From Archangium violaceum (GTDB lineage: Bacteria; Myxococcota; Myxococcia; Myxococcales; Myxococcaceae): a stretch of DNA of 64,000 nt. The translations under genes and the position numbers were made by a program. The stretch lies in assembly GCF_016887565.1 (NCBI RefSeq), contig NZ_CP069396.1, positions 12,568,001 through 12,632,000 on the forward strand. Direction: 5' to 3'. The number at the start of each line of letters is the position of its first letter. The stretch's first letter is position 1. Positions 1 through 49,743 of this stretch are shown in pieces. The notes beneath the pieces are model-generated. The model had not been told where the DNA came from. It saw only the letters and a list, made by a program, of their open reading frames with translations, and did no database searches.

Positions 1-52
1 CGCTCGATCCTTCCGCGGATGGCGTCCATGGAGATCAGGAACCCATTTCCTC

Positions 53-1873
53 TTGGGCCGGATCTTCATGCACGAGACGAACGACACGACTCCCAGCGGG
101 CTCATCCTCCTCTCCCAACCCGAGCAGCTCAGCGTCACACCGAAGGACATGGTCGATGCGCTCCCGGAGGCCTACAAGGCGCTCCCCCGGCTGACGGTCG
201 ATCTGGACGTGGTGGAGCTTGCGCGGCAGGCCGTCCGAACGCGCGACTGGGGGGCGACACAGCGCGCACTCGAGGAGCGGGTGCGCAAGGAGCTCGTTCC
301 CCTCCGGGACAAACACCCCGACTACCGCATCATCTACTTCGGCTCCTCGCCCATTCCGCTCACGGTCCACCTCGGTTTCCTGCTCGAGACCTGGCAGGGA
401 GTGGAAGTCATCCCGCACCACCACACGCGGCGGCTCTGGGGGTGGCTCTCCGAGCCAGGGAGACCGCCCGCCCGCCTCAAGCCGGTCCGTCCGTTGGATT
501 ACAGGGACAACTCACCGGGTGAAGCCGTCATCCGGGTCTCGACATCACACCTCGTCGACCCGAAGGCGACGCTGCGCGTGATTCCCAAGCCATTGGTGGA
601 TATCGACATCGAGCTGGAGCGGCCCGCGGAGGACGCCTTCTCCCGCCTGGAGGAGATGCAAGAGGTCGCCCGCGCGTTCCGCGAGACCCTGGACGCCATT
701 GGCGACAGGTTTCCGGGCATTCAGCGCGTCCATTTGTTCGCCTCCGTGCAGCCGGGGATGGCGCTCCTGCTCGGCGCGCAGATCAGCAAGACGATGCACC
801 CGGCCGTGCAGACCTATCAGTACGCGCGCAACACGGAGAACGAGCCATACCACGTGCCTGCGGTGCTCGTGAATGGTCCGAGTCAACCCGAGCTCGAGCC
901 CCTCACGGAGGAAGAGAAAGCACGGGCCACGAGGGATCGCGAGCAGCTGGCGCGAGAACTCAAACGCCTGATGGGCCGCGCACTGGCGGAGCAGAGAAAC
1001 CCCGCCCCCAACTGGCTCACGGGCCTCTTTCCGAAACCCGGAGGACACCCGGGGTTCTCCTCCCACTGGCTGCACATGCCTGCCCTGCACGAGACGCCGC
1101 TACTCAAGACGAAGGTGGATGTCGAGACCCGGATGATCGAGGACAGCTTCCGTTATCTCCACACCCTCCGTGTCTGGCAGCTCGACGATCACTGGCTGGC
1201 ACGGCTCGCGAAGAGACACCCGGACGACACCCGACGTGAGCGCGCCCTGCGCATGCTCGTCCTGCATGAGCTGGCACATCGTGGGCCGCAAGGGCTCACC
1301 AGCACGTCGAGCAAGGAGATCGGTCGCTTCCCCAAGGTTCTCGAGGAAATGGACTACCACGCGGACGTGTGGGCGATGCTGTACGAGTACGTGCTCACGG
1401 AGCAGCAGAACCCGCCCGAAGTCGAAGACCCGCAGGAGTTCTTCCTGGAGCTGATCCGGGTCGCGACCGAGACCATGTGGGCGTTCAACGATGACGGCCA
1501 GCCCTCTCGGGAGATCCAGATCCGCCGTCTCAACCGATACCTCATCTGGTACTGGCAATACCTGCTGTTGGAGCATGGGGCCGGGAAGGGACAGAAGACG
1601 ACGCTCGACTTCGTCCTCTCGCTCCTCGCCCAGCGCCCCATCATCGAACTGGCCGGGCCCACCGTGCTCCCCCGCGATGAACGCGTCTTCTTCGCCCTCG
1701 ACGCCGCTCGTATGAACATCCCCGAGCTCGCCCTCTACCACGAGGGCCGTCTCTACCGGCACGGAGCACGCTACGACTTCTCCATCGACGAACTGCTCGA
1801 TGGGGTGCGGATGCGCGACGGGAAGCAGATCCGTGAGGTCCTGCGCGCGGCCTTCGAACAGACGGTGCGTTGA
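53..1873 (+). CDS. SAVED-domain protein fused to HExxH zincin-like domain (CBASS-type effector candidate)
   Basis: Probable cyclic-oligonucleotide-sensing effector. The N-terminal half (about residues 90-260) has the two-strand SAVED pattern: YFGSSPIPLTVHLGFLL near 95-111 and VHLFASVQPGMALLLGA near 226-242, with TYQYARN closing. The C-terminal half carries HELAH (405-409), a zinc-protease signature, with DYHAD (434-438) as possible third-ligand region. Known SAVED proteins bind cyclic di-, tri- or tetranucleotides made by CD-NTases and activate a fused nuclease, TIR or protease domain; the protease role here is inferred. The CD-NTase gene starts 34 nt downstream. Position 53 is a TTG; an ATG lies at 68, and the frame stays open to the left edge, so the true start may lie outside the window. 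Confidence 0.75.
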   Translation: MGRIFMHETNDTTPSGLILLSQPEQLSVTPKDMVDALPEAYKALPRLTVDLDVVELARQAVRTRDWGATQRALEERVRKELVPLRDKHPDYRIIYFGSSPIPLTVHLGFLLETWQGVEVIPHHHTRRLWGWLSEPGRPPARLKPVRPLDYRDNSPGEAVIRVSTSHLVDPKATLRVIPKPLVDIDIELERPAEDAFSRLEEMQEVARAFRETLDAIGDRFPGIQRVHLFASVQPGMALLLGAQISKTMHPAVQTYQYARNTENEPYHVPAVLVNGPSQPELEPLTEEEKARATRDREQLARELKRLMGRALAEQRNPAPNWLTGLFPKPGGHPGFSSHWLHMPALHETPLLKTKVDVETRMIEDSFRYLHTLRVWQLDDHWLARLAKRHPDDTRRERALRMLVLHELAHRGPQGLTSTSSKEIGRFPKVLEEMDYHADVWAMLYEYVLTEQQNPPEVEDPQEFFLELIRVATETMWAFNDDGQPSREIQIRRLNRYLIWYWQYLLLEHGAGKGQKTTLDFVLSLLAQRPIIELAGPTVLPRDERVFFALDAARMNIPELALYHEGRLYRHGARYDFSIDELLDGVRMRDGKQIREVLRAAFEQTVR

Positions 1874-21760: not shown

Positions 21761-24661
21761 TCAGCTCTTCGCGAAAGGGCCCTTGCCCCTGCGGTATGCG
21801 ACGACGGCCTGCTCGGGAGTCATCGCCGTGCCCTCGGCCCAGACGGCGGCGAACAGGGTGTCTCCCAGCTCGCCGCGCGCGTGAACGACGGCCTCGTCGA
21901 ACTCCGTCTGATCGATCCGGTCGAGCGCGCTCCCACTCCTCTCGAGCAGGGCCTGCGCCGCGGCGAGCAGGCCCGCGGCACGGTCTGGCTGCTGCTGCAT
22001 CCCCGCCAGCCGGGCCAGGCCCACGAGCGACGCGGCGATGCGGCACTTGTCGCCCTGCTCGCGGCACACGGACAGGCTCTCCTCGAACAGCGATTCCGCC
22101 AGCGCCAGCTCGCCCCGGCGCAGCGCGACCAGCCCGCGCACGTGCAGCGCGGTCGCGATCCCCGTCTTCGCCCCCAGCGCCCTGTAGTGCGCCAGGGCCT
22201 CGTCGCAGGGAGCCGTGGCGCGCGGATAGTCCCCCTCGCCCAACCCCACCCGCCCCAGCTCCGTCAGGCAATGGGCGATCTCGTGCGGATCCCCCGTCTC
22301 GCGCAGCAGGCCCAGGCACTCCTCCAGCCGGGTGCGCGCAGTGGCGAAGTCTCCCTCGGCCAGCGCCATGCGTCCCAGGTCGGAGAGGCCGGCCGCGAAA
22401 TACATCCGGTCTCCCAGGCCCCGGAAGATGGCCACGTTCTCCTCGAAGTACGCGCGGGCCGCGGCGTAGTCGCGCCGGGCCAGCGCATCCCAGCCCAGCT
22501 TTCGAAGCACGTAGGCCGCGCCCCGGGCATCGCCCAGTTGCCTCCGCAGCGACAGGCTCTCCTCATCGTACCCGCGGGCCTTCACGGGGTCCCCCAGGCC
22601 GCGCGTCGCGTTTCCCAGCACGCTGAGCGACATGGCGATGCCGTGCAGGTCTCCCAGCGGGCGCAGGAGCTCCAGGGCCTCCAGGCAATGCGTCCGCGCC
22701 ACCGCGAAATCGCCCTGCTCGGTCCCCAGGGACGCCGCCACCAGGAGCGCCTTGGCCCGCAGACCTTCCGGTGCTCCGCGGCCTTTCTGCAATGCCGCCT
22801 CGGCCCAGCGGCGCCCCTCCGCCAGGTGTCCCCGGTTGCCCCAGAACCACATCATGGCCACGCAGAGCCGGAGCGCCACCTCGGCCTCCGCGTTCTCCAG
22901 CGCCCAGCTCAGCGCCGCGCGCACGTTGTCGTGCTCCCGGCCCAGCCGGTCGAACCAGACGAGCTGTTCCGGCCCCCGGAGCCGCCCGTCCGCCTCCTCC
23001 GCCAATGCCAGGAAGTACGCGGCGTGCCGCTGGCGCAATCCGGCCGGGTTGCCCTCGGCCGAGGCCCGCTCCCAGGCATACTCGCGGATCGTCTCCAGGA
23101 TGAGGAAACGTGGCTCCCCATCCGGCTCCACGTCCTGGCGCAGCAGGCTCTTGTCCGCCAATGACGCGAGGCCGTCGAGGATGTCGAACCCCTCCGTCCC
23201 CTCGCACACCGCCTCCACCGCCTGGAACGTGCAGCCTCCGACGAACACCCCCAGCTGGCGGAAGAGCGCCCGCTCCTCGACGGAGAGCAGGTCGTAGCTC
23301 CAGGCGATGGCCCCCCGCAGCGTCCGCTGCCGCGCGGGCAGATCCCCCAGGTTGGACGCCGAGAGCGCCAGCCGGCTCGGGAGGCGGCGCAGCAACATCG
23401 GAGGGGGGAACTGGCGGACACGCGCGGCCGCCAGCTCGATGGCCAGCGGCAGGCCGTCCAGCCGCGAGCAGATCTCCGCCACCGCGGCCGCGTTCTCCTC
23501 GGACAGCCTGAAGTCACTCCGCACCGCCGTCGCCCGCTCGACGAAGAGCCGGACCGAATCGAACTCCATCAGCCGCTCCGCCGGGGGGAGGGCCTTGAGA
23601 TCCGGAAGCGCCATCGGCGGGACCGGGTAGTCGTGCTCGCCCGAGACCCACAGCAGGGCCCGGCTGGTGACGAGCACCTTGAGCTCCGCGCCCGCCCTCA
23701 ACAGGTCCACCACGACCGGCGCGGCGGTGGTGACCTGCTCGAAGTTGTCCAGCAGCAGCAACATCTGCCGGCCGCGGACGCGCTCCTTCAGGCACTCCAG
23801 CTCCGTCCGTTCTCCGTCCGCCTTGACGCCGAGGACCTGGGCGATCGCCGACGGAACCAGCGCCGGGTCCGAGACCGACGCCAGCTCCACGAACCAGACC
23901 CCATCGCGGAACTCGTCCAGCATGTGGTGCCCGGCCTGAAGGGAGAGCCGCGTCTTGCCGGTCCCCCCCGGCCCCGTCAGCGTGAGCAGGCGCACCTTCG
24001 GATCTCTCAGCCGCCGCTGGAGCTCGGCCAGTTCCCGCCACCGGCCGACGAACGCGCTCGGCGGGGACGGGAGGTTGTGCGGCCGGGGCTCGAGCGAACG
24101 CAGCGGTGGGAACTCCGCCGGCAGCGCGGGGTGCACCAACTGGTAGATGTGCTCGGGCTCTGGAAGATCCTTGAGGCGGTGCTCGCCCAGGTCCCGAAGC
24201 GACGCGCCCCCGGGCAACGCACCGGGCTCGGACACCGCCGTGGCGACGACCCCGGAGAGCACGATCTGCCCGCCGTGCGCCGTCGACATCAGGCGGGCGC
24301 ACCGGTAGAGGGGAGCGCCGAAGTAGTGGCTCCCCTGGGGCTCGACCTCTCCCAGGTGCAGGCCCATCCGCACCTTGAGGGTGCCCAGCTCGCCCCAGGG
24401 CTCCGCATGGAGCGCGCGCTGGCCTTCCAGCGCCGCCGCCAGGGCCTCCGCCGGCCGGGGGAAGGAGGCATAGACGGCATCCCCCACCGTCTCGAACACG
24501 ACGCCGCCCTGGGTCTCGACCGCCTGCCGGAGCAGCTCATGGTGGCGGCGGACCGCGGACCGGTACGCGTCCGGGTGTGCCTGCAGCAGCCGGGTCGAGC
24601 CCTCGATGTCGGTGAAGAGGAAGACGACGGTGACGGTGGCCCGGGCGCTGGAGGAATTCAT
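21761..24661 (-). CDS. Class III nucleotide cyclase / AAA ATPase / TPR regulator
   Basis: About 966 aa. N-terminal class III cyclase domain (about 8-170): metal-binding FTDIEGSTRL, VGDAVYASF, and RMGLHLGE. Then a P-loop NTPase of the transcription-regulator type (TLTGPGGTGKTRL Walker A; MLLLLDNFEQV Walker B), a winged-helix-like linker and, from about 550, some eight TPR-like repeats. Such proteins are common in actinobacteria and myxobacteria; whether the cyclase makes cAMP is not decided by eye, as the substrate-specifying residues were not checked. M at 24661 starts MNSSSARATVTVVFLFTDI and was chosen over upstream frame-open sequence. It lies 67 nt downstream of the borosin-type methyltransferase gene on the same strand, so co-transcription is possible. 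Confidence 0.88.
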   Translation of the reverse strand: MNSSSARATVTVVFLFTDIEGSTRLLQAHPDAYRSAVRRHHELLRQAVETQGGVVFETVGDAVYASFPRPAEALAAALEGQRALHAEPWGELGTLKVRMGLHLGEVEPQGSHYFGAPLYRCARLMSTAHGGQIVLSGVVATAVSEPGALPGGASLRDLGEHRLKDLPEPEHIYQLVHPALPAEFPPLRSLEPRPHNLPSPPSAFVGRWRELAELQRRLRDPKVRLLTLTGPGGTGKTRLSLQAGHHMLDEFRDGVWFVELASVSDPALVPSAIAQVLGVKADGERTELECLKERVRGRQMLLLLDNFEQVTTAAPVVVDLLRAGAELKVLVTSRALLWVSGEHDYPVPPMALPDLKALPPAERLMEFDSVRLFVERATAVRSDFRLSEENAAAVAEICSRLDGLPLAIELAAARVRQFPPPMLLRRLPSRLALSASNLGDLPARQRTLRGAIAWSYDLLSVEERALFRQLGVFVGGCTFQAVEAVCEGTEGFDILDGLASLADKSLLRQDVEPDGEPRFLILETIREYAWERASAEGNPAGLRQRHAAYFLALAEEADGRLRGPEQLVWFDRLGREHDNVRAALSWALENAEAEVALRLCVAMMWFWGNRGHLAEGRRWAEAALQKGRGAPEGLRAKALLVAASLGTEQGDFAVARTHCLEALELLRPLGDLHGIAMSLSVLGNATRGLGDPVKARGYDEESLSLRRQLGDARGAAYVLRKLGWDALARRDYAAARAYFEENVAIFRGLGDRMYFAAGLSDLGRMALAEGDFATARTRLEECLGLLRETGDPHEIAHCLTELGRVGLGEGDYPRATAPCDEALAHYRALGAKTGIATALHVRGLVALRRGELALAESLFEESLSVCREQGDKCRIAASLVGLARLAGMQQQPDRAAGLLAAAQALLERSGSALDRIDQTEFDEAVVHARGELGDTLFAAVWAEGTAMTPEQAVVAYRRGKGPFAKS

Positions 24662-24728: not shown

Positions 24729-25523
24729 TCACCGGCCCCCCTGGGGAGCCCTGAGTGCACGCAGCCGCTCGACCATGGCTTCGTCCACCTCGGGAGGGCG
24801 GGCCGGAGGAATGTACAGGGTCATGGACGGGGGGATGTCCGCCTCCGCGAGCCGCTTCAGGGGAAGACGGCGGATGGTGGGCTCACACCCCGGGAGCGTC
24901 GAGGCCTGGTAGAGGCACACCTCGTGGTCCTCGGAGTAGAACGGGAGCAGGCGCTCCACCAGCAGCGGCAGCGCCGAGAGGTCATACCGCTCCTGCTTGT
25001 AGGTCCAGTCACCGATGGCGCCGATCTGCCAGAGGATGACGGCACTCGACACATCGAGGGGGCGCCGGTACAGCAGGAAGTCGGTGGCCTCATAGGACTG
25101 ACAGCCGGTCTTCGGGTCGACACCGAGGTCGGCGAACAGGCAGTCCTCGGCCGAGATGCCCGGGAGCATCTGGGCGCGATAACCCTCGCGGCGCGCGCGC
25201 CGGATCGCCTCGTGTGAGGGATAGGCGAACACGCCCGGGTGACCATACAGTGCCAGACACGTGAGCTGGCCGGCGCGCACGCACGTCAGCACGCGCTCGA
25301 CCATCTCCTCATAGGTGTCCGTGCGGAGCTTGCCGTCGGCATAGAGGCCCACCAGCGACTCCGCACCGCGCGGGTTCAGGTCCTGGATCACCGCCACCGA
25401 GACCGGATTGGACACGATGTACAGCACCTTGTCCGCCCGGCGCATCCAGGCGATGGCCTCGGTGGTGAGCTGGCCGACCGGACTGATGCCGGTGCCGACG
25501 ACGATCAAGGAACCTTCGCCCAT
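24729..25523 (-). CDS. Borosin-type alpha-N-methyltransferase (SonM/OphMA-like, tetrapyrrole-methylase fold)
   Basis: SAM-dependent methyltransferase of 264 aa, expected to N-methylate backbone amides of a partner peptide. It reads VVGTGISPVGQLTTEAIAWM (SAM loop), conserved Tyr61, Arg67 and Tyr71 in YADGKLRTDTYEEM, ALYGHPGVFAYPSHEA, then LPGISAEDCLFADLGVDP and ILWQIGAIGD. These blocks are hallmarks of the borosin methyltransferases OphMA and SonM rather than of cobalamin/siroheme methylases. OphMA carries its substrate in cis; here there is no C-terminal core, and a small peptide gene lies 12 nt upstream, as in split borosin systems. Start ATG 25523 follows the precursor stop closely. Product undetermined. 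Confidence 0.87.
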   Translation of the reverse strand: MGEGSLIVVGTGISPVGQLTTEAIAWMRRADKVLYIVSNPVSVAVIQDLNPRGAESLVGLYADGKLRTDTYEEMVERVLTCVRAGQLTCLALYGHPGVFAYPSHEAIRRARREGYRAQMLPGISAEDCLFADLGVDPKTGCQSYEATDFLLYRRPLDVSSAVILWQIGAIGDWTYKQERYDLSALPLLVERLLPFYSEDHEVCLYQASTLPGCEPTIRRLPLKRLAEADIPPSMTLYIPPARPPEVDEAMVERLRALRAPQGGR

Positions 25524-25535
25524 GACGTGAACCGG

Positions 25536-25889
25536 CTATCGCCGCGGCTTCGATTCCGGCTTGGGCTTGGGGGCGGGCTTGGGCGCCGGCTCGGTCCCGG
25601 GTGTCGGCTCCTCCGAGGGCTCGGAGTCGGGCACGAGCGTGGTATCGGGCTCGGGCTCGGGTGCCGAGGCCTGCATCATCCCGTCCACGCGCAGCGCATC
25701 GACGCCGAGCCGCGAGAAGATGGCCTGGGTATTGCCGCTACCGAGCGCCTGCCGGTCCTCGGCGGACAGACCCGCGGAGGCCATCGCCTCGGCGGGATCC
25801 GCGAGGAATGCGCCCAGCCGAGTGGGGTCCGTCGCCAGGCCCGCCAGGAACTGCGTCAGTGCACCACGACCCTGAACTTCGACCGCCAT
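25536..25889 (-). CDS. Candidate split-borosin precursor peptide
   Basis: 117-residue protein directly upstream of the methyltransferase. Residues about 9-63 form an amphipathic helical domain: LTQFLAGLATDPTRLGAFL, ADPAEAMASAGLSAEDRQAL, then NTQAIFSRLGVD. This matches the binding-domain pattern of SonA-like precursors (a DP-x-AM-x-AGL-x-xxD...AI pattern). The last 45 or so residues are Pro/Glu/Ser then Pro/Lys rich (SEPSEEPTPGTEPAPKPAPK), unlike the hydrophobic cores of known borosins; the DTTLVPDS segment near residue 82 is the only hydrophobic patch in the tail. The ATG at 25889 follows AAGGAGG with 8-nt spacing; ATG 25895 is too close. The core is not identified. Confidence 0.78.
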   Translation of the reverse strand: MAVEVQGRGALTQFLAGLATDPTRLGAFLADPAEAMASAGLSAEDRQALGSGNTQAIFSRLGVDALRVDGMMQASAPEPEPDTTLVPDSEPSEEPTPGTEPAPKPAPKPKPESKPRR

Positions 25890-25911
25890 GAGCATCCCCT
25901 CCTTGTACAAT

Positions 25912-26120: not shown

Positions 26121-27518
26121 ATGGCGCCTCCTCGCATCCCGCTGCCGCACCTCCTTCAACTCCACCAATGGGTCGCCCACCCCCTGCGGTTCATGGAGGA
26201 GTCGGCACGCCGTTACGGCGATAGCTTCGTGATGCAGTTTCCCAACACCCCTCCGTTCCTCTTCACCCGAGACCTGGAGATGATCCGCCAGGTCTTCACC
26301 GGCAAGCCGGAGGATCTCCACGTGGGACCGGTGAACCGGGTACTGGAGGCGGTGGTGGGAAAGCACTCCCTGCTGCTGCTCGATGGCCAGGAGCACATCC
26401 AAGAGCGGAGGATGATGACACCTCCCTTCCACGGTGAACGGATGCTGGCCTACGGACTGTCCATGCGCGAGTCCGCCAGCCGTTCCATCGACCGGTGGCC
26501 GCGGAGCGGGGCCTTCACCCTCCACGAGGTGTTCCAGGACATCACCCTGGACATCATCCTCAAGACGGTCTTCGGCCTCTCCGAGGGAGCGACACTCGAG
26601 CGCTTCCGCGAGCTGTTCGTGCGGATGCTGAACATGGGCTCGGCGAACGCCGTGCTGTACTTGAGCGCCCTGCTCCCGGCGGAGCGGCTGCACCGGGTGC
26701 TCGCGGTGGGGAGGGACCCCATCCAGCTCGGGCCGGTGAAGGCCGATGTGAGCTGGGCGCTGCCGTGGACCCAGCTCAGCCGTCTCATGCGAGAGGTGGA
26801 CACGTACCTCTTCACGGAGATGGAGCGGCGCCACGCCGAGGGCGTCGAGAAGCGCGAGGACGTCCTGTCGATGCTCATGCAGGCGCGTGACGAGCACGGC
26901 CAGCCCATGTCCGACCAGCAGTTGCGTGACGAGGCCATCACCCTCCTGGCGGCCGGGCACGAGACCACCGCGACCACGCTCTCGTGGGCCTTCCACTTCG
27001 TCCTCCAGCACCCCGAGGTGGAGGAGAAGCTCCGGGCGGAGCTCCACCAGGTGGCGGGAACGGGGCCACTGGCTCCCGAGCAGGTGAACCGGCTGGAGTA
27101 CCTGGACGCGACCTTGAAGGAGACGTTGCGTCTGGTGCCCGTCGCGCCCGCCGTGGGCCGGGTGCTGCAGCGGCCGATGAAGGTGGGCGAGTGGGAGCTG
27201 CCCGCCGGCATGGCCGTGATGGCGTGCTCCTATCTCACGCATCGCCGCCCGGACCTGTGGCCAGAACCCGAGCGCTTCAACCCGGAGCGCTTCATGGGCA
27301 AGCGGCCCGGGCCCCACGAATACTTCCCCTTTGGAGGCGGGGCCCGGCGCTGCCTCGGCATGGCCTTCGCCAATTACGAGATGCGGATCGTCTTCGCCGA
27401 GGTCCTCCGCCGGGTGAAGCTCCGGCCCGCCACGCCCTACGCGTTCCGGGTGGCGCGGCGCGGTGTCACCCTGACGCCCGAGGGAGGGGTGCCCGTCGTC
27501 GTCGAGTCGCGGAGCTGA
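26121..27518 (+). CDS. Cytochrome P450
   Basis: Haem-thiolate monooxygenase of 465 aa. Haem-binding [15 protein letters not shown] with proximal Cys411, I-helix oxygen groove [15 protein letters not shown], and the EXXR charge pair in KETLRLVP. The sequence style, with the N-terminal [20 protein letters not shown] and [12 protein letters not shown], is of the CYP102/CYP4-like bacterial group. Substrate unknown. It is transcribed divergently from the borosin-type operon across 231 nt, so it could be a tailoring enzyme for that peptide, but this rests on position only. Electron partner not in the window. ATG 26121 has GGAGGAG about 14 nt upstream, a long spacing. Confidence 0.93.
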
Positions 27519-27654: not shown

Positions 27655-28577
<923 letters not shown>

Positions 28578-28581
<4 letters not shown>

Positions 28582-29339
28582 ACCTGTATGCGATTCGAGC
28601 CATCTACCGGTTCGAGATGGCGCGCACCTTCCGCACGCTGATGCAGAGCATCGCCTCTCCGGTGCTGTCCACGTCGCTGTACTTCGTGGTGTTCGGCTCG
28701 GCGATCGGCTCGCGCATGGGGGAGATCAACGGCGTCAGCTACGGGGCCTTCATCATCCCCGGCCTGCTCATGCTGTCGCTGCTGAACGAGAGCATCTCCA
28801 ACGCCTCGTTCGGCATCTACATGCCGAGGTGGTCGGGCACCATCTACGAGGTGCTGTCCGCACCGGTGTCCTACGTCGAGGTGGTGATTGGCTACGTCGG
28901 CGCCGCGGCCACCAAGTCGGTGATGCTGGGGGTGCTGATCCTGGCGACGGCCCGGGTGTTCGTGCCCTACGAGATCGCGCATCCCCTGTGGATGGCCTGC
29001 TTCCTGGTGCTGACCGCGGTGACCTTCAGCCTGTTCGGCTTCATCATCGGCGTCTGGGCGGACGGCTTCGAGAAGCTGCAGGTCATCCCGTTGCTCGTCA
29101 TCACCCCGTTGACCTTCCTCGGGGGCGCCTTCTATTCCATCAACATGCTGCCGCCGGTCTGGCAGAAGATCACCCTGTTCAACCCGGTGGTGTATCTGGT
29201 CAGCGGCTTCCGCTGGAGCTTCTACGGCGCCTCCGACGTCAACGTCACCATCAGCGTCGGCATGACCCTGGTCTTCCTCACCCTCTGCCTGGTCGCCGTG
29301 AGGTGGATCTTCAAGACGGGGTACAAGCTGAAGGCCTGA
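28578..29339 (+). CDS. ABC-2 type transporter permease
   Basis: Integral membrane partner of the preceding ATPase, 253 aa with about six membrane segments. Visible: [20 protein letters not shown] then [16 protein letters not shown], the [15 protein letters not shown] segment, [35 protein letters not shown] and [16 protein letters not shown]. The [13 protein letters not shown] loop is characteristic of ABC-2 permeases. ATG 28578 overlaps the ATPase stop. 180 nt without a recognisable gene follow. Confidence 0.93.
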
Positions 29340-47502: not shown

Positions 47503-49743
47503 ATGCCCCGTTACTTTCGCATCCATCCCTCCGTGGGCGTCGCCCGCGTCGGCAACTCCCCGGACGAGTACTTCGTCGGTCCCGAGCGTCCCAACCAGCC
47601 CCCCAACTTCGACATCACCCAGAAGAAGTTCCTGCCCTTCAAGGACAGTCAGGGCCGCGTCAAGCGGCAGGCGGCCCGCTTCCGCGTCTTCGAGTACACG
47701 ATGCAGAACGGCGTGCTGACCCCCCTGCGGGAAGTCACCCCGGGCAGCTGCGACGTCACCAGCATCAAGTGGAACGTCCACCTGGCCAACCGCAAGGCCG
47801 CCTTCTTCATGTTCGACGGACAGGATGGGGCGGACAATGGCGTCTGGAAGGGGGGCGTGCGCAATGCGCATGTCCAGGGCGCGGCCGAGCGCGAGCGGCT
47901 GCTCGTCATCAACCCCGGGCTCAAGTCCATCTCGGGCCGGAACCAGCCGCCCGTGCCCTTCACCAACCCGAACAAGAACATCCCCATCGCATCCCTGGGC
48001 GAGCTGCGCACGGATGAGAATGGCAACCTGCTCGTGCTGGGCGGGCTCGGCGAGGCCAACAAGATCGCGAAGGCCGGACTCATCAACGACTACGTGAACA
48101 ATGATTCCTGGTTCGACGACATGTCGGACGGGCCCGTGAGCGCGGAGATCACCTACACGGAGGCAGGCAAGGCCCAGACGGCGAAGCTGGAGGGCACCAA
48201 CGGCGCCTGGCTGCTGGTGGGGCCGCCGGATTTCGGGCCCTCGGTGACCAACGTCGTGCGCCTGTTCGACACCATGTGGGACGTGGCGGTGCGCTTCCCC
48301 GAGGTGCCGCTGCCCAACACCGACGGCCTCTTCAACCAGGGCCTGCTGGCCCGGCTCAAGCAGCAGCGCGCGGACTGGAACGCGGCAACCAATTCCTTCC
48401 AGAAGTACAAGCCTTCCTTCCGGCAGGAAGTGTTTCCCATCCTCGAGCATGCGCTGGGGCACCGCCATGTCCACAACCCCGAGGCCTCCAAGTCCTTCCA
48501 TGCCTCCCTCGCGGGCGTGGAGCAGGATATCGGCACGGTGGCATCGGCCAAGGGCAAGCGCCTGCGCAAGACGATCTTCAACTACCTGCGTGACCCCGCC
48601 AGCGCCACCATCGAGCCCCTGCTGATGCCCAAGGGGCTGGGCGACTTCTACTCGGACGACGCGCCCGAGGAGGGGATGGACACGAGGGGCTACTTCATGA
48701 CCCTCACCAAGGTGCAGTTCGCGGTGCTCAAGCGCTGGGCCGAGGGAGAGTTCGAGGAGGATTGGAACGCGGCGCTGGCCCATGCCATCGACCCGGCCAT
48801 CACCGCCGAGGGGCTCGATCGGGCCTCGCTGGAGAACGGCGTGGGCGGCCCCTTCTTCCCCGGCATCGACTGCAGCTGGATGGTGCGCCGGCCCGAGCTG
48901 TACGCGGCTCCCTTCCGCATCAAGCACTCGGGCGTGGCGTACCCCACCACGGCGAAGCTGCCCATCGGCCCGGGGTTCTTCTCCCAGCAGATGGCGCTGC
49001 CCTGGCAGGCGGACTTCTACCAGTGCAAGAAGCAGTTCTTCGCCCCCAAGTCCTTCACGAAGAACACCTTCGAGGGCGACGGCATGTACCACATGTGGTG
49101 GGCCGCGCACCGTCCAGATGACGTCTACGCGAAGAAGGGAGACTTCCAGATGGTTCCCTGGACTCGCGCCCTGGATACGGTCGCCGAGCTCGAGGCCCTG
49201 AAGCCGGAGATCAAGAACAGCGCGCCCGAAGGCACCTCCCCCGTCGAGATGGCCATGTACATCCAGATGCAGAAGAACTGGTGGCAGCTCGGCTTCGTCA
49301 TCAACGAGGGCGACGTGCATTTCGAGACCCAGGAGCGCAGCGCACCGACAGGGGTTGCCTCCGTGCGGAACGCGACCCGGATCAGGCTCAAGTCCTGGAA
49401 GACGGACTACCTGCAGCGCACCGACGCGGCTCAAGGCGTCACCACCGCGACCAGCGGGGCCGGCACGGAGTGGATCGTGGAATGGGTGAGCAACAACACG
49501 CTCAAGCTCAAGTCGTCGAAGGGAGACTACCTGCAGCGCGCCGACGCGGCTCAAGGCGTCACCACCGGGACCACGGGGGCCAACACGGTGTGGATCATCG
49601 AGGCCAACACCGACAAGTTCACGTTGAAGTCCGCGAAGGGTGACTGCCTGCACCGGCCCGATGCGGCTCCCAGTGTCACCACCTGGGGTGATGGCATCGG
49701 CAACCTGTGGCAGATCGAAGTGCTGGCGTCCGCCAAGGTCTGA
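47503..49743 (+). CDS. LodA/GoxA-like cysteine-tryptophylquinone oxidase with C-terminal trefoil repeats
   Basis: 746 aa quinoprotein oxidase. N terminus IHPSVGVARVGNSPDEYFVG is the LodA family opening. The CTQ-forming pair can be placed: Cys457 in FFPGIDCSW and Trp501 in LPWQADFYQC, with YHMWWAAHRPDDV close behind. Known members oxidise L-lysine or glycine, giving H2O2 and ammonia, and need LodB. The substrate here is unknown. The last 130 residues, absent from plain LodA, form three repeats of about 40 residues (LKS-x-K-D-YLQR-x-DAAQGVTT) with a beta-trefoil look. No signal peptide, as in known LodA proteins. ATG 47503 follows AGGAAC. Operon order cytochrome-LodA-LodB. Confidence 0.9.
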   Translation: MPRYFRIHPSVGVARVGNSPDEYFVGPERPNQPPNFDITQKKFLPFKDSQGRVKRQAARFRVFEYTMQNGVLTPLREVTPGSCDVTSIKWNVHLANRKAAFFMFDGQDGADNGVWKGGVRNAHVQGAAERERLLVINPGLKSISGRNQPPVPFTNPNKNIPIASLGELRTDENGNLLVLGGLGEANKIAKAGLINDYVNNDSWFDDMSDGPVSAEITYTEAGKAQTAKLEGTNGAWLLVGPPDFGPSVTNVVRLFDTMWDVAVRFPEVPLPNTDGLFNQGLLARLKQQRADWNAATNSFQKYKPSFRQEVFPILEHALGHRHVHNPEASKSFHASLAGVEQDIGTVASAKGKRLRKTIFNYLRDPASATIEPLLMPKGLGDFYSDDAPEEGMDTRGYFMTLTKVQFAVLKRWAEGEFEEDWNAALAHAIDPAITAEGLDRASLENGVGGPFFPGIDCSWMVRRPELYAAPFRIKHSGVAYPTTAKLPIGPGFFSQQMALPWQADFYQCKKQFFAPKSFTKNTFEGDGMYHMWWAAHRPDDVYAKKGDFQMVPWTRALDTVAELEALKPEIKNSAPEGTSPVEMAMYIQMQKNWWQLGFVINEGDVHFETQERSAPTGVASVRNATRIRLKSWKTDYLQRTDAAQGVTTATSGAGTEWIVEWVSNNTLKLKSSKGDYLQRADAAQGVTTGTTGANTVWIIEANTDKFTLKSAKGDCLHRPDAAPSVTTWGDGIGNLWQIEVLASAKV
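49387..49740 (+). repeat. Three 40-codon repeats in the LodA 3' end
   Basis: Units start at about 49387, 49507 and 49624. The first two share a 42-nt stretch with one difference (GACTACCTGCAGCGC...), the third is more diverged. Such near-identical DNA inside a trefoil points to recent tandem duplication or ongoing homogenisation. Confidence 0.75.

What the first reader, a model, noticed from the sequence alone, without database searches (positions are those of the whole stretch)
24729..25889. Split-borosin-type operon: small helical precursor plus SonM/OphMA-like methyltransferase
The methyltransferase has the LPGISAEDCLFADLG and YGHPGVF blocks of backbone N-methyltransferases, and the gene next to it encodes a short helical protein with a SonA-like DP-x-AM-x-AGL-x-D domain. 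Only 12 nt separate them. This is a ribosomal peptide pathway that installs backbone N-methyls.
Basis: partly seen in the sequence, partly recalled or inferred. Interest (0 to 1): 0.85.

Follow-up and report, generated by a model that had tools for sequence, protein, structure and literature searches.

The report
Split borosin pair beside signalling gene
Two adjacent genes in a myxobacterium very probably make a small protein whose peptide backbone is methylated, a known but little-understood pathway, and related gene pairs elsewhere often sit beside signalling genes, which hints at what such peptides might do.

Summary
At 24729-25523(-) lies a 264-aa methyltransferase; 12 nt upstream, at 25536-25889(-), a 117-aa protein. 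In the PDB the enzyme matches only borosin backbone N-methyltransferases (dbOphMA E 5e-59, SonM 1e-58) and keeps SonM's four probed active-site residues. The small protein is predicted as a five-helix bundle plus a disordered tail; its best fold matches are SonA and the OphMA clasp, and a family profile finds SonA at 2e-14. Of 79 related loci, 69 carry such a binding domain. So this is a split borosin pair, a new member of a known kind; methylation itself is untested. The likely core is residues 70-76, before a Pro/Glu/Lys tail that looks a poor substrate. The P450 and ABC genes next door are not dedicated to it. A wider lead: borosin pairs recur beside large signalling genes, often with TPRs (at least 37 of 65 loci, my tally over). 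Here the neighbour is a cyclase-STAND-TPR gene directly downstream.

The parts
25536..25889 (-). Split-borosin precursor, 117 aa (binding-domain leader + tail)
   Evidence: AAGGAGGGG at 25896-25904 (sequence)
25707..25877 (-). Borosin binding domain (BBD), residues 5-61, five predicted helices (5-20, 22-30, 32-38, 43-51, 54-61)
   Evidence: block-mean pLDDT 91-97 over residues 11-60, 62 over 1-10; SonA/OphMA clasp best fold matches; profile hit to SonA
25662..25682 (-). Predicted methylation register, residues 70-76 (GMMQASA); SonA L63/I65 map to residues 70/72
   Evidence: inference: alignment offset +7 (7ltr_I 3..54 on model 10..61) and methyl sites from PMC8429565
25539..25661 (-). Pro/Glu/Lys-rich disordered tail, residues 77-117
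   Evidence: role unknown, spacer inferred
24729..25523 (-). Backbone alpha-N-methyltransferase (SonM/OphMA type), 264 aa; Y61, R67, Y71, Y93 correspond to SonM Y58, R67, Y71, Y93
21761..24661 (-). Class III nucleotide cyclase-STAND (NB-ARC)-TPR protein, about 966 aa, same strand, 67 nt downstream of the methyltransferase if the ATG at 24661 is used; possible third gene of the operon
   Evidence: start choice and operon membership are inference
26121..27518 (+). Cytochrome P450, divergent neighbour; probably NOT part of the pathway
   Evidence: present in G045 (93% aa) and G043 (85% aa), which lack the enzyme
27655..29339 (+). ABC transporter ATPase and membrane genes; probably NOT part of the pathway
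   Evidence: the membrane gene has a 98% relative in G045 and a 93% one in G047, at other places, and both genomes lack the enzyme

Best explanation
A split borosin pair. The 117-aa precursor folds into a five-helix borosin binding domain that docks on the methyltransferase. Its flexible C-terminal part is threaded into the active site, where SAM-dependent methyl groups are placed on backbone amide nitrogens, most likely in the stretch 70-76 (GMMQASA), stopping at Pro77. The remaining Pro/Glu/Lys-rich tail is probably a soluble spacer rather than core. Shown by computation: the genes, the enzyme family and catalytic residues, the predicted binding-domain fold, and the conserved partnership. 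Inferred: dimer assembly, methylation, its sites, any later cleavage. The co-directional cyclase-STAND-TPR gene may be linked in function (regulation or response), on the strength of a pattern seen in relatives.
For: PDB search with the enzyme: 25 of 25 distinct sequences at E<=1e-3 are borosin methyltransferases. SonM Y58, R67, Y71, Y93 (mutants in PMC8429565, section read) align to Y61, R67, Y71, Y93. Family profile of the precursor hits SonA chains at 2e-14 to 1e-13 and the OphMA clasp at 2e-6 to 6e-6. AlphaFold model with five helices and disordered tail; ranks 1-25 of the 56 Foldseek PDB matches are all SonA or OphMA-type chains, best SonA rows rmsd 0.9-1.0 A over 49-55 columns; VIA best Z 9.5, rmsd 2.4, 66 aligned. 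BBD ORF in 69 of 79 genome-contig loci; three BBD-enzyme fusions. BBD and enzyme distances correlate over 53 loci, Mantel r 0.55, 0 of 2000 permutations. Tails after the BBD differ widely between loci and several are repeats, as expected of RiPP cores.
Against: No mass spectrometry. The precursor alone finds no SonA in the PDB by single-sequence search; only the profile does. Foldseek E-values are weak (best 0.076, none <=0.001), the full-length wild-type SonA row 7ltc_B superposes only at 5.9 A over 74 columns there, and Z near 9 can be common for helical bundles (note). The tail is Pro/Glu/Lys-rich: prolines have no NH, and a bacterial type III borosin enzyme did not methylate acidic, basic or aromatic residues at its tested position (PMC11395268, passage). 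The predicted core is only mildly hydrophobic. 10 of 79 loci have no BBD found in the locus. I found no protease or exporter tied to the pair among the neighbours scanned. The Mantel correlation could partly reflect shared descent.
Confidence: 0.9

Rival explanations
1. The enzyme is a borosin-type methyltransferase but the 117-aa neighbour is not a peptide-product precursor: its binding domain acts as a regulatory or scaffold subunit, and the Pro/Glu/Lys tail is never cleaved into a product. (This overlaps the best explanation: methylation could still occur.)
For: Tail composition is unlike a hydrophobic core; BBDs are also found fused to other enzymes (C-terminus of a PRMT-like methyltransferase in L023 and L040, read from the sequence) and to the methyltransferase itself (L010, L011, L031); signalling genes recur as neighbours.
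Against: Many relatives carry clear repeat or hydrophobic tails at the same place; SonA with the same layout is methylated (PMC8429565).
Confidence: 0.25
2. The enzyme is a cobalamin or siroheme C-methyltransferase.
For: It belongs to Pfam TP_methylase (E 9e-19); NCBIfam weak hits to YabN and CobI.
Against: The six NCBIfam hits are all far below cut-off (YabN 49.5 of 525 bits); no corrin enzyme among the 25 PDB hits; in a quick tree of 89 rows the genome's own TP methylases fall on the other side of one branch, support 99. Limits of that tree: only 5 of the genome's 7 other TP methylases are in it, two of them twice; several long branches; and the borosin rows were collected by similarity to the window enzyme.
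Confidence: 0.02
3. The small protein is a LigA-type dioxygenase subunit or a NHLP/Nif11-type leader that merely resembles a BBD.
For: Sub-threshold hits to LigA (16 bits, cut-off 25.3) and to NHLP and IniB_NTERM families; BBDs are structurally related to dioxygenase caps (PMC8429565 section 7; 1bou Z 7.6).
Against: No dioxygenase among the 8 window proteins scanned; the partner is a borosin enzyme; the best SonA rows rank above LigA in the profile and fold searches, though some SonA rows do not.
Confidence: 0.03

Closest known systems
SonM-SonA of Shewanella oneidensis (type IV split borosin)
   Same: Separate enzyme of 263-264 aa and adjacent small precursor; four probed active-site residues; five-helix BBD followed by tail (PMC8429565 sections 6, 7, 9 and passages read)
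   Different: SonA is 71 aa in entry 7ltc; this precursor is 117 aa with a 41-aa Pro/Glu/Lys tail; methylation not shown here
OphMA / dbOphMA (fungal fused borosins)
   Same: Homologous methyltransferase domain; clasp domain homologous to the BBD
   Different: There enzyme, BBD and core are one protein; here two
Solirubrobacter soli locus L003 and Phenylobacterium locus L004
   Same: Closest enzymes found (65% and 61%) with BBD precursors directly upstream
   Different: Their tails are long PQIHPQ-type repeats; no proven product that I know of
Corallococcus sp. CA053C locus L081
   Same: Same bacterial family as the window (by the contig-length match of G066); BBD precursor with Pro/Lys-rich tail 21 nt upstream of the enzyme
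   Different: Enzyme 49% identical; the neighbour is a Ser/Thr kinase-AAA-TPR gene on the opposite strand

Membership tests
Split borosin (type IV / class 3: BBD and core in one protein, enzyme separate) | Separately encoded alpha-N-methyltransferase and precursor | tested here: met
   definition from PMC8429565 and figure legend of PMC11395268
Split borosin (type IV / class 3: BBD and core in one protein, enzyme separate) | Enzyme homologous to borosin methyltransferases with conserved active-site residues | tested here: met
Split borosin (type IV / class 3: BBD and core in one protein, enzyme separate) | Enzyme lacks fused clasp and core | tested here: met
   264 aa, residues 4-254 aligned to SonM 2-255
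Split borosin (type IV / class 3: BBD and core in one protein, enzyme separate) | Precursor has a five-helix borosin binding domain | tested here: met
   (prediction, no solved structure)
Split borosin (type IV / class 3: BBD and core in one protein, enzyme separate) | Methylatable, mostly hydrophobic core after the BBD | tested here: inconclusive
   G70 M71 M72 at offsets where 48-56% of 63 family members have aliphatic/hydrophobic residues; rest of tail Pro/Glu/Lys-rich
Split borosin (type IV / class 3: BBD and core in one protein, enzyme separate) | Backbone N-methylation of the precursor, enzyme active as homodimer | not testable with these tools
   needs expression and mass spectrometry
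Tetrapyrrole (cobalamin/siroheme) C-methyltransferase | Score above curated cut-off of a corrin/siroheme enzyme family | tested here: not met
   YabN 49.5 bits against 525; CobI 25.1 against 163.25
LigA subunit of extradiol dioxygenase | Pfam LigA above gathering score and a LigB partner | tested here: not met
   16 bits against 25.3; no dioxygenase among the 8 window proteins scanned there

The most novel reading that the evidence does not exclude
Split-borosin pairs are modules of TPR-based signalling operons: the backbone-methylated BBD peptide is a ligand, substrate or regulator of the neighbouring transducer, whose output domain is swapped between lineages (Ser/Thr kinase, histidine kinase, class III cyclase, BTAD activator). 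In the window it would act on the cyclase-STAND-TPR protein encoded directly downstream.
Probability: 0.2. Interest if true: 0.85.

Novelty: new member of a known kind. Interest (0 to 1): 0.5.

Why it matters
The 2021 paper that described bacterial split borosins says none of these pathways was yet tied to a final natural product (PMC8429565, Discussion passage), so what they are for was open then. This pair is a small test case with a precise predicted methylation register. The repeated placement of such pairs beside signalling genes, in several gene orders, offers a testable idea for their role. I do not know whether that link is in print: 'kinase' occurs 0 times in PMC11395268 and once, as a cloning reagent, in PMC8429565; for the other papers that hold both words I saw listings only, and the main split-borosin surveys are not held.

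Tried and rejected
P450 and ABC genes as dedicated tailoring/export genes: rejected. Of 5 other genomes of the genus none has the enzyme at E<=1e-20, yet G045 and G043 have the P450 (93% and 85% aa), and G045 and G047 have the ABC membrane protein at 98% and 93% aa, elsewhere in the genome. In the 14-kb stretch of G045 around the P450, window 17.3-26.1 kb and 27.5-29.5 kb have no match.

A second precursor elsewhere in the genome: none other at E<=0.1, with 150 of 195 first-look candidates scored. Phage origin: no match at E<=1e-10 in 50,697 phage records; 9 of 72,556 plasmid records hold a relative at E<=1e-20, all under 60% identity. Promoter and terminator consensus scans found 0 sites.

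Signalling lead, controls against it. A near/far gene count (kinase 16 of 216 near genes, 2 of 173 far; TPR 15 of 216, 0 of 173) is biased against long genes in the far zone, so for kinases I made a density test; it also shows a far-zone excess (6 of 30 loci against 1.26 expected, 221 of 200,000 simulations), so proximity alone is weak evidence. Cyclases: one search counted 4 loci with the window, but L018's domain lies beyond the 3.5 kb used for the expectation. The consistent recount (31 loci, window left out) gives 3 loci (L056, L070, L071) against 0.38 expected at 3.5 kb, P 0.007, and 4 against 0.48 at 4.5 kb, P 0.0015. It was framed after seeing the window, and the cyclase model was built from three of these loci and the window. 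A fresh gammaproteobacterial sample (9 of 369 genomes; 8 new loci fetched) gave BBDs in 3, a histidine kinase in 2 of those 3, and neither BBD nor signalling domain in the other 5. Two further sub-threshold matches of the precursor (Trypan_PARP, TonB) reflect its Pro-rich tail.

Full report
THE GENES. On the minus strand, ATG 25889 to stop 25536 encodes 117 aa, and ATG 25523 to stop 24729 encodes 264 aa, with 12 nt between. The first has a Shine-Dalgarno stretch at 25896-25904; G+C by codon position looks gene-like in both, including the low-complexity tail. The window lies in a 13.2-Mb single-contig genome. A same-family genome, G066, carries an enzyme relative on a 98,218-base contig, the length of a contig of Corallococcus sp. 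CA053C, so the host is a myxobacterium (inference).

THE ENZYME. It is in Pfam TP_methylase, but all 25 PDB sequences found at E<=1e-3 are borosin methyltransferases: dbOphMA 5e-59, SonM 1e-58, OphMA 2e-54 and others. Corrin and siroheme families in NCBIfam score far below cut-off. SonM residues Y58, R67, Y71 and Y93, mutated in PMC8429565 (section read), align with Y61, R67, Y71 and Y93; in 91 aligned rows, window included, these are Y in 71, R in 84, Y in 86 and Y in 86. In a quick tree of 89 rows the borosin-like rows and the genome's other TP methylases fall on two sides of one branch, support 99. That tree holds only 5 of the 7 other TP methylases (two entered twice by my ORF choice), has long branches, and its borosin rows were gathered by similarity to the window enzyme, so the PDB result is the more independent one.

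THE PRECURSOR. Alone it finds no SonA in the PDB. A profile of 43 family members, itself included, does: SonA chains 2e-14 (a Y62A variant) to 1e-13, wild type 6e-14, the dbOphMA/OphMA clasp 2e-6 to 6e-6, then gallate dioxygenase and LigA. TAL-effector chains also match, at 9e-9 to 9e-5, but only over 18 profile positions and with no stretch passing on its own; I take them as repeat artefacts. AlphaFold2 on that alignment gives five helices at 5-20, 22-30, 32-38, 43-51 and 54-61, block-mean pLDDT 91-97 over residues 11-60, and a disordered tail. PMC8429565 describes SonA's leader as a five-helix bundle, residues 1-53. Foldseek against 350,542 PDB chains puts SonA and OphMA-type chains at ranks 1-25 of 56 matches (best E 0.076, rmsd 0.9 A over 49 columns; none at E<=0.001), and VIA gives Z 9.5, rmsd 2.4, 66 aligned, with the caution that helical bundles score easily.

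THE PARTNERSHIP. One genome-contig scan found 157 relatives and kept 80 loci at 45-65% identity, the best in Solirubrobacter soli. In the 79 with an enzyme ORF called, 69 hold a BBD ORF (near-identical loci not merged). In three (L010, L011, L031) the BBD is fused to the enzyme. BBD and enzyme distances correlate over 53 loci, Mantel r 0.55, 0 of 2000 permutations reaching it. In the window's order 7 of 145 genomes carry the enzyme at E<=1e-20, 1 of 6 in the genus, the window's own genome counted, and its nearest relatives lie in other phyla, which suggests horizontal acquisition (inference).

THE CORE. SonA is methylated at L63 and I65 (PMC8429565, passages). With an offset of 7 residues these map to residues 70 and 72 of the window precursor, in GMMQASA followed by Pro77. 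Across 65 non-redundant tails the same register is mildly rich in hydrophobic residues. The rest of the tail is Pro/Glu/Lys-rich. Proline has no amide hydrogen (general knowledge), and a bacterial type III borosin enzyme did not methylate acidic, basic or aromatic residues at its tested position (PMC11395268, passage). I therefore expect few methyl groups, just after the BBD, and a spacer role for the tail. Another small candidate is TTLV at 83-86. Pro-rich tails are not odd in this family: cyanobacterial members end in DPGPDPLPDPDPFP-like stretches and Corallococcus in a Pro/Lys tail.

SURROUNDINGS. Upstream and divergent is a P450, then an ABC transporter pair. Relatives of both are kept in genomes of the genus that lack the enzyme (P450: G043, G045; ABC membrane gene: G045 98%, G047 93%), so I do not count them as parts. 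Downstream on the same strand, 67 nt away if ATG 24661 is the start, is a gene for a class III cyclase-STAND-TPR protein; the genome has one other such protein at E<=1e-30.

A PATTERN IN THE RELATIVES. Kinase domains lie in 35 of 79 loci, 33 of them with a BBD; in 29 of those 33 the nearest kinase, BBD and enzyme are on one strand, in four gene orders: 17 enzyme-BBD-kinase (all cyanobacterial, hence close to one lineage), 6 kinase-BBD-enzyme, 5 BBD-kinase-enzyme (all Polyangium) and 5 BBD-enzyme-kinase, 4 of these last with mixed strands. Related loci were not merged in that test, so its strength is overstated. Among 39 further loci whose nearest gene on each side was scanned, histidine kinases occur in 6, cyclases in 3 (L018, L070, L071) and BTAD-TPR proteins in 2. 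By my own tally this makes 37 of 65 non-redundant loci, with the kinases counted anywhere in the locus and the others only in nearest genes; 28 of 65 show none by these criteria. A cyclase-domain scan adds cyclases in L056, L038, L046 and others, 11 of the 79 loci in all, near-copies included; the excess near the enzyme is modest, 3 against 0.38 in 31 loci, P 0.007. Other loci of the order, one or two genes scanned in each: kinase-AAA-TPR in L098, kinase-TPR in L102, a hybrid histidine kinase in L100, no signalling family in L099 and L101; L088 not examined. A fresh gammaproteobacterial sample is small.

VERDICT. A genuine split borosin pair, new member of a known kind, confidence 0.9 that the enzyme methylates this precursor's backbone. 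The link to signalling is a lead, not a finding about this window alone. Papers: PMC8429565 (outline, sections 6, 7, 9 and passages), PMC11395268 (outline, section 28 and passages), PMC11285071 (passages). The 2022-2023 split-borosin surveys were not seen; what I say of them is from citations in those papers.

Noticed in passing
L028, L035, L037, L039, L047 and other cyanobacterial loci; L022, L025 (Polyangium); L003, L016, L019, L043: Borosin BBD genes next to Ser/Thr kinase genes, mostly on one strand and in several gene orders.
   Followed up: partly
L018:1592-4945, L070:5323-7257, L071:6781-10041 and window 21761-24661: Cyclase proteins (AAA/STAND found in three, TPRs in three) beside borosin enzymes in three distant taxa and the window.
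   Followed up: partly
L023:4802-5992 and L040:4757-5989: A BBD at the C-terminus of a protein whose front half reads like an arginine-methyltransferase (recalled motif, no family search), directly upstream of the borosin enzyme.
   Followed up: no
L003, L004, L018, L043, L052: Precursors with long repeated tails (PQIHPQ, PAGAVAPQV, VVYAAG, PAMVYGAG), apparently multi-core.
   Followed up: no
L076:3384-5537 (Oscillatoria princeps): A PatG-like subtilase/macrocyclase gene upstream of a BBD and borosin enzyme, possibly a maturing protease.
   Followed up: no
L070 (Thermoplasmata archaeon MAG): A borosin pair in an archaeal assembly, with a hydrophobic tail and a cyclase-TPR neighbour.
   Followed up: no
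window 53-1873: SAVED-domain protein (E 5e-33), a sensor type known (recalled) from nucleotide-signal phage defence.
   Followed up: no
window 47503-49743 and L061:6541-8403: LodA-type lysine oxidase genes, one in the window and one beside a borosin locus.
   Followed up: no
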